DNA from: Candidatus Methanomethylicaceae archaeon
Lineage (GTDB): Archaea; Thermoproteota; Methanomethylicia; Methanomethylicales; Methanomethylicaceae
Direction of reading: 5' to 3'
Length of the DNA: 64,000 nucleotides
NCBI GenBank assembly: GCA_015660995.1
Contig: JACTUC010000001.1
Coordinates: forward strand, 1-64,000
This document shows, in pieces, positions 31,343 through 31,495 of the stretch. The position numbers and the translations under genes were made by a program. The notes under the pieces are model-generated. The model ran no database searches and was not told where the DNA came from. It saw only the letters and a list, made by a program, of their open reading frames with translations. Each line of letters starts with the position of its first letter. Position 1 is the stretch's first letter.

Positions 31343-31495
31343 TGTTGAACAGTTGATAAGATAAGCATTAATGAGTTAAGTGTGTTCTCTGTTGCACAGT
31401 TAGGTAAATAATAGAATTCTATTTTATATAGGTAAATGTTGAACACTTTAACGCTTTAACAATAAATTTTTGGAATCCACTGTTGTTCAACAATT
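31343..31495. repeat. Four palindromic TGTTSAACA sites at exact 47-bp period
   Basis: Sites at 31343, 31390 (1 mismatch, TGTTGCACA), 31437, 31484; each followed by NTT. Confidence 0.85.

What the first reader, a model, noticed from the sequence alone, without database searches (positions are those of the whole stretch)
31343..31495. Four palindromic TGTTSAACA sites at an exact 47-bp period in a convergent intergenic region next to an SMC-like operon
TGTTGAACA (31343), TGTTGCACA (31390), TGTTGAACA (31437) and TGTTCAACA (31484) are each exactly 47 bp apart, and each is followed by NTT. The 9-mer is an odd palindrome (TGTT-S-AACA). The ~35 bp between sites are not conserved, so this is not an ordinary tandem duplication. 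A degenerate site (TGCTGACAG, ~31297) may extend the array. The region is AT-rich and lies between two convergent genes (SMC-like operon ending 31281, GltB-like ending 31585), so promoter regulation does not explain it. 47 bp is about 4.5 helical turns. Inference: an iteron/centromere-like or origin-like protein-binding array, possibly a loading or recruitment site for the adjacent SMC-like complex.
Basis: partly seen in the sequence, partly recalled or inferred. Interest (0 to 1): 0.88.

Follow-up and report, generated by a model that had tools for sequence, protein, structure and literature searches.

The report
Evenly spaced protein-binding sites in archaeon
Four copies of a short palindrome sit exactly 47 bases apart between two genes of an uncultured methanogen-lineage archaeon; the same motif and the same 47-base register recur at just one other place in its genome, in front of two divergent genes, so this is most likely a regulator's docking array rather than a chromosome-loading site for the neighbouring SMC-like genes.

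Summary
TGTTGAACA, TGTTGCACA, TGTTGAACA and TGTTCAACA lie exactly 47 bp apart at 31343-31492. This is the best four-fold periodic match in the window and exceeds all 40 shuffles; spacers match each other only at chance level. The host is a Methanomethylicaceae-type archaeon (Thermoproteota). The array is confined to this genome: absent from 60 relatives, while the SMC-like operon's last gene is conserved in 27 relatives without it, so the SMC-loading idea is not supported. Array and gltB-like gene occupy a lineage-specific insertion. The new link: a cluster of three TGTNNNACA sites occurs at only two loci in this genome, this array and contig C25 (903, 926, 950; first to third exactly 47 bp). 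C25 lies in a divergent promoter region between an unknown gene and a winged-helix protein plus NifB-like gene. 400 other Thermoproteota genomes gave five further clusters, at least two of them tandem duplications. Two species of a sister genus carry pairs of the motif upstream of orthologous histidine kinases. Best reading: an operator-type array for an oligomeric regulator, resembling archaeal Lrp/BarR operators; spacing (4.5 helical turns) and convergent location are unusual. Regulator identity and effect remain inferred.

The parts
31343..31351 (.). site 1, TGTTGAACA (15-bp dyad AATTGTTGAACAGTT, 31340-31354)
31390..31398 (.). site 2, TGTTGCACA (one base off the palindrome)
31437..31445 (.). 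site 3, TGTTGAACA (15-bp dyad AAATGTTGAACACTT, 31434-31448)
31484..31492 (.). site 4, TGTTCAACA; TGTTCAACAATT (31484-31495) is the exact reverse complement of AATTGTTGAACA at site 1
31282..31584 (.). convergent intergenic region holding the array, 34% GC, specific to this genome among 61 searched
31422..31431 (.). TATA-like AT core between sites 2 and 3 (TTTTATATA on +, CTATATAAAA on -); possible promoter element, not significant on its own in AT-rich DNA
   Evidence: inference
30712..31281 (+). left neighbour: 189-aa tandem winged-helix (kite-like) protein, last gene of the SMC-like operon
31585..33054 (-). right neighbour: gltB-like glutamate synthase-domain protein with DUF2769, lineage-specific insertion

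Best explanation
The four sites are an operator-type array: each TGTTSNACA dyad (roughly AANTGTTSNACANTT over 15 bp) is bound by a dimer of a sequence-specific regulator, and the fixed 47-bp step lets dimers, or a larger oligomer, bind cooperatively along about 150 bp and bend or wrap the DNA. The same regulator most likely acts at the divergent promoter on contig C25, where three sites span the same 47-bp step with one site in the middle. In the convergent gap the array most likely serves as an auxiliary or relocated operator in recently inserted DNA, possibly silencing a short transcript from the TATA-like core between sites 2 and 3. Shown here: the sites, the exact phase, non-homologous spacers, the unique shared motif and 47-bp register with C25, and absence from relatives. 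Inferred: binding itself, the identity of the regulator (the C25 winged-helix protein is a candidate) and the effect on transcription.
For: The array exceeds all shuffles; spacers are unrelated, so the phase is constrained without homology. Clusters of three TGTNNNACA sites occur at only two loci of this genome, with no hit in 21 relatives and no control hit there; 400 Thermoproteota genomes give five further places, two of them evident tandem duplications. Even pairs of TGTTNNACA starting within 47 bp of each other occur in this genome only at these two loci, reversed control 0. The C25 sites are at 903, 926 and 950, first to third exactly 47 bp, in a divergent intergenic region. Four g2 species carry one TGTGCAACA/TGTACAACA site in the same divergent region. 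Two g3 species carry TGTTGAACA/TGTTGCACA pairs 36 bp apart upstream of an orthologous HisKA_7TM kinase. The array and C25 align beyond the motif (ATATAGG..TGTNNNACANTTTAAC), reached by 3 of 300 shuffles. The C25 neighbour is predicted to be a winged-helix protein. Archaeal Lrp regulators use clusters of regularly spaced 13-17-bp palindromes (PMC2995911, PMC10201364).
Against: The array lies at the 3' ends of both neighbouring genes, not at a known promoter; no convincing ORF lies within it and RNA folding is unremarkable (z -0.66 and -0.89). 47 bp is about 4.5 helical turns, so neighbouring sites face opposite sides of the helix, unlike Lrp operators, which keep one face (PMC2995911). The 15-bp dyad with up to 2 mismatches is not enriched genome-wide (103 and 105 matches against 92 and 88 in the control). 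The candidate regulator is conserved in genomes that lack the array and lack the C25 triple. Only one genome of this genus was searchable.
Confidence: 0.55

Rival explanations
1. Remnant or live iteron/origin-type array of an integrated mobile element: a replication or partition protein bound these iterons, and the gltB-like gene arrived with it.
For: The array sits in lineage-specific inserted DNA next to a gltB-like gene that is absent from relatives; evenly spaced sites around an AT-rich core look iteron-like.
Against: No replication, integrase or partition gene adjoins it; no match in phages, plasmids or as an exactly spaced pattern in viral contigs (the looser three-site scan gave hits that were not examined); the only sister cluster in this genome is in a conserved divergent gene pair, not a mobile element.
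Confidence: 0.15
2. Chromosome-organising or segregation site (centromere, nucleoid anchor, or loading site for the adjacent SMC-like complex).
For: The neighbouring operon encodes an SMC-like ATPase and a kite-like protein with Nse1/Nse3-type fold; phased palindromes between convergent genes could suit an anchor.
Against: The kite-like gene is conserved in 27 relatives without the array; the second cluster is in a divergent promoter region beside a NifB-like gene; the motif differs from the SegB consensus (PMC12284271); sites are not scattered.
Confidence: 0.08
3. A decoy or transcription-boundary element: the regulator binds between convergent genes to titrate it or to block read-through and polymerase collision.
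For: Location between two convergent 3' ends; the same motif in a promoter region elsewhere.
Against: Relatives manage a similar convergent junction without any such element; no direct evidence of blocking.
Confidence: 0.17
4. Chance or selection of a striking pattern by the reader, with no function.
For: The array is found in one genome only; the genome-wide motif count is low and the degenerate 15-mer is not enriched.
Against: Exceeds all shuffles; p between 4e-7 and 1.4e-3 for the whole window over all periods; independent recurrence of motif and 47-bp register at C25.
Confidence: 0.05

Closest known systems
Archaeal Lrp-family operators (Ss-LrpB, BarR, Ah-BarR of Sulfolobales)
   Same: Clusters of three to five regularly spaced semi-palindromic 13-17-bp sites, often in divergent intergenic regions beside a regulator gene; the gltB control region is a hotspot for Lrp regulators in Sulfolobus (PMC2995911, PMC10201364, PMC4977709).
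   Different: Known centre-to-centre steps are two or three helical turns on one face; here 47 bp (about 4.5 turns) and 23/24 bp. Ah-BarR sites read like TTGTACTTTTTACAA, not TGTTSNACA. The array here is at the 3' end of gltB, and no Lrp protein has been tied to it.
SegB centromere sites of archaea
   Same: Short odd palindrome with a central S.
   Different: SegB consensus is TCTAGA-S-TCTAGA with dozens of scattered, mostly intragenic sites (PMC12284271); here TGTT-S-AACA, clustered at two loci.
Iterons of plasmid or viral replication origins
   Same: Short repeats at a fixed period around AT-rich DNA.
   Different: No replication gene adjoins; sites are symmetric dyads; no match found in plasmids or phages.

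Membership tests
Archaeal Lrp-type operator | multiple semi-palindromic sites of 13-17 bp in one region | tested here: met
   four dyads in the array, three at C25
Archaeal Lrp-type operator | sites on the same helical face, two or three turns apart | tested here: not met
   47 bp = 4.48 turns and 23/24 bp = 2.2-2.3 turns at 10.5 bp per turn (rule from PMC2995911)
Archaeal Lrp-type operator | bound by an Lrp/AsnC-family protein | not testable with these tools
   no binding data; the C25 neighbour is a winged-helix protein without Pfam or NCBIfam match
Archaeal Lrp-type operator | located in a promoter/control region | tested here: inconclusive
   C25 cluster is between divergent genes; the array is between convergent 3' ends, with a TATA-like core only
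SegB centromere-like sites | AGA-S-TCT core of the motif | tested here: not met
   sites read TGTT-S-AACA; consensus from PMC12284271
SegB centromere-like sites | many sites dispersed over the chromosome | tested here: not met
   clusters at only two loci; 12 exact TGTTSAACA places against 5 in control
Loading site of the adjacent SMC-like complex | co-conserved with the SMC-like operon | tested here: not met
   kite-like gene found in 27 other genomes; array in none
Replication origin / iterons | adjacent initiator gene (cdc6/orc1 or rep) | tested here: not met
   none among the 38 or so window proteins scanned, including both neighbourhoods of the array; the first 8 kb of the window was not scanned
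Decayed tandem repeat | homology between repeat units beyond the motif | tested here: not met
   spacers 7-11 of 35 identical, expected 10.3

The most novel reading that the evidence does not exclude
A previously undescribed regulator family of Methanomethylicia (possibly the 134-aa winged-helix protein encoded beside a NifB-like gene) that recognises TGTTSNACA and assembles on a 47-bp lattice with half-integral helical phasing, so that successive dimers sit on opposite faces of the DNA and form a two-sided nucleoprotein filament, including in a convergent intergenic region.
Probability: 0.15. Interest if true: 0.6.

Novelty: new variant of a known kind. Interest (0 to 1): 0.4.

Why it matters
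Little is known of transcription regulation in this lineage of methyl-reducing methanogens and their relatives. The finding supplies a concrete operator motif, a spacing rule, two loci that carry it and a candidate winged-helix regulator. If the 47-bp half-turn lattice is real, it would be an operator geometry unlike the same-face arrays of known archaeal regulators.

Tried and rejected
Rfam and tRNA scans of the window: nothing. RNA folding of both strands: not better than shuffles. Small ORFs in the gap: none convincing. Similarity of the region to phages or plasmids: none. Exact spaced pattern in viral contigs: none. Genome-contig search for the gltB-like protein: no relative (the own genome may be left out there). 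Contexts of the nine other exact TGTTSAACA places: seven lie inside ORFs, one in a convergent gap (C3:23683), one just upstream of or at the start of a small gene (C20:117612), so no obvious wider regulon. A third dyad with zero mismatches (C7:87988) lies inside the 3' end of a Trm56 gene about 90 bp before a TFE-alpha gene; left as a weak lead. Half-phase sites between the four array sites: none seen by eye. Overall dyad symmetry about 31417.5 outside the four sites is only slight (25 of 62 positions). SMC loading, SegB, origin and decayed-repeat readings were weighed and rejected for the reasons given.

Full report
What is there. The window belongs to an archaeon of the Methanomethylicaceae type (Thermoproteota; relatives of the left neighbour gene carry that name). 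The genome held is 1.63 Mb in 28 contigs and the window is the start of contig C20. Between a 189-aa gene ending at 31281 (+) and a gltB-like gene ending at 31585 (-) lies a 303-bp, 34% GC gap. It holds TGTTGAACA, TGTTGCACA, TGTTGAACA and TGTTCAACA at 31343, 31390, 31437 and 31484, each 47 bp apart. The suggested fifth, degenerate site is one base out of phase and is not counted.

Is it more than chance. I scored every four-fold periodic match in the window for periods of 13-150. The array is the best (44 of 48 letters agree over 12 columns); 40 shuffles with local composition kept reach at most 40. A Gumbel fit puts the window-wide probability at 4e-7 to 2e-5 for 12 columns and 5e-5 to 1.4e-3 for 9 columns. 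The stretches between the sites match each other no better than their composition predicts (7-11 of 35, expected 10.3). This is therefore not a decaying tandem duplication: the phase is kept while the sequence is not.

Is it conserved. It is not found beyond this genome. A DNA search of 60 relatives found only the own genome, and a pattern of two TGTTSMACA sites 33-63 bp apart occurs in 3 of 61 genomes. In most close relatives the 189-aa gene is followed, convergently, by lhr, directly or behind another gene; in a few it is followed by a different gene. The gltB-like gene with its array is a local insertion; the best matches to gltB within the family are only about 41% identical (wider search). 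The 189-aa gene of the SMC-like operon is conserved in 27 other genomes without the array, which removes the main argument for an SMC loading site.

The key link. A cluster of three TGTNNNACA sites was sought in 22 genomes. It occurs at two loci only, both in this genome: the array and contig C25. The reversed control gave none in these genomes. In 401 Thermoproteota genomes there are five further places: two are evident tandem duplications, one looks tandem-like, one lies inside an ORF, and one, in G196, also lies between divergent genes. The reversed control is not empty in this wider set (about a dozen genomes have some), so single clusters do arise by chance or by repeats elsewhere in the phylum. 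Even pairs of TGTTNNACA starting within 47 bp of each other occur in this genome only at these two loci. At C25 the sites are TGTTCGACA (903), TGTTGTACA (926) and TGTAGAACA (950): first to third exactly 47 bp, with one site in between. C25 lies between divergent genes: an unknown 151-aa protein on one side and a 134-aa protein followed by a NifB-like radical SAM protein on the other. The array and C25 also align beyond the motif, reached by 3 of 300 shuffles.

Support from other genera. In the same divergent region, four species of genus g2 have one TGTGCAACA or TGTACAACA site; g3, g4 and g5 have none. In two g3 species, TGTTGAACA and TGTTGCACA (in either order) stand 36 bp apart upstream of an orthologous HisKA_7TM histidine kinase while the DNA between them has diverged. 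These are modest but independent signs that the motif is a binding site in this family.

Candidate regulator. The 134-aa protein is found in the databases only in this lineage as far as the names show and aligns with an invariant helix-turn-helix-like core. The predicted model has the winged-helix order of elements (mean pLDDT 78). Foldseek hits are weak (none below 0.001) but many are winged-helix proteins (TubR, PadR, MarR, JetB). It is a candidate, no more: it is also present in genomes without the sites.

Mechanism. Most likely a regulator dimer binds each dyad and neighbours interact across the fixed 47-bp step. At 10.5 bp per turn that is 4.48 turns, so adjacent sites look to opposite sides and alternate sites (94 bp, 8.95 turns) to the same side. 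Known archaeal Lrp arrays keep one face, with two or three turns (PMC2995911). The resemblance to Lrp/BarR operators is therefore one of working principle; the helical-face feature was tested and not met. Between sites 2 and 3 there is an AT-rich core with TATA-like sequence on both strands, so a short regulated transcript is possible; nothing here shows one.

What remains open. Binding, the identity of the protein, and the effect are not shown. Only one genome of this genus could be searched.

Noticed in passing
window 28139-31281: Operon of a short SMC-like ATPase (597 aa), a 307-aa protein and a 189-aa tandem winged-helix protein whose model best matches Nse1/Nse3 (MAGE) kite subunits of Smc5/6 (7dg2_C TM 0.64; 5hvq E 8.7e-6), then MukE/JetB. 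The 189-aa member is conserved in 27 other genomes. Archaeal Smc has been reported to lack kite subunits (PMC7055376), so this three-gene complex deserves its own study.
   Followed up: partly
window 26434-27996: Eukaryote-type topoisomerase IB gene, divergent from the SMC-like operon.
   Followed up: no
window 31585-33054: gltB-like protein with N-terminal DUF2769; named relatives at about 60-65% identity include ANME/Methanoperedens and NC10 lineages, so it was probably acquired horizontally.
   Followed up: partly
G000 contig C25:900-960 (locus L258): Second cluster of the motif in a divergent promoter region beside a winged-helix protein gene and a NifB-like radical SAM gene.
   Followed up: yes
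L074 and L075 (G013, G002), about position 5001: Pairs of TGTTGMACA 36 bp apart, with diverged spacer, upstream of an orthologous 7TM histidine kinase.
   Followed up: partly
L285 (G196), about position 1501: TGTTGGACA, TGTTGCACA and TGTTGTACA 19 and 20 bp apart between divergent genes of a distant Thermoproteota genome; may be an unrelated operator of similar type.
   Followed up: no
G000 contig C7:87988-88002: Zero-mismatch 15-bp dyad AACTGTTCAACAATT about 90 bp upstream of a TFE-alpha gene, inside the 3' end of a Trm56 gene.
   Followed up: no
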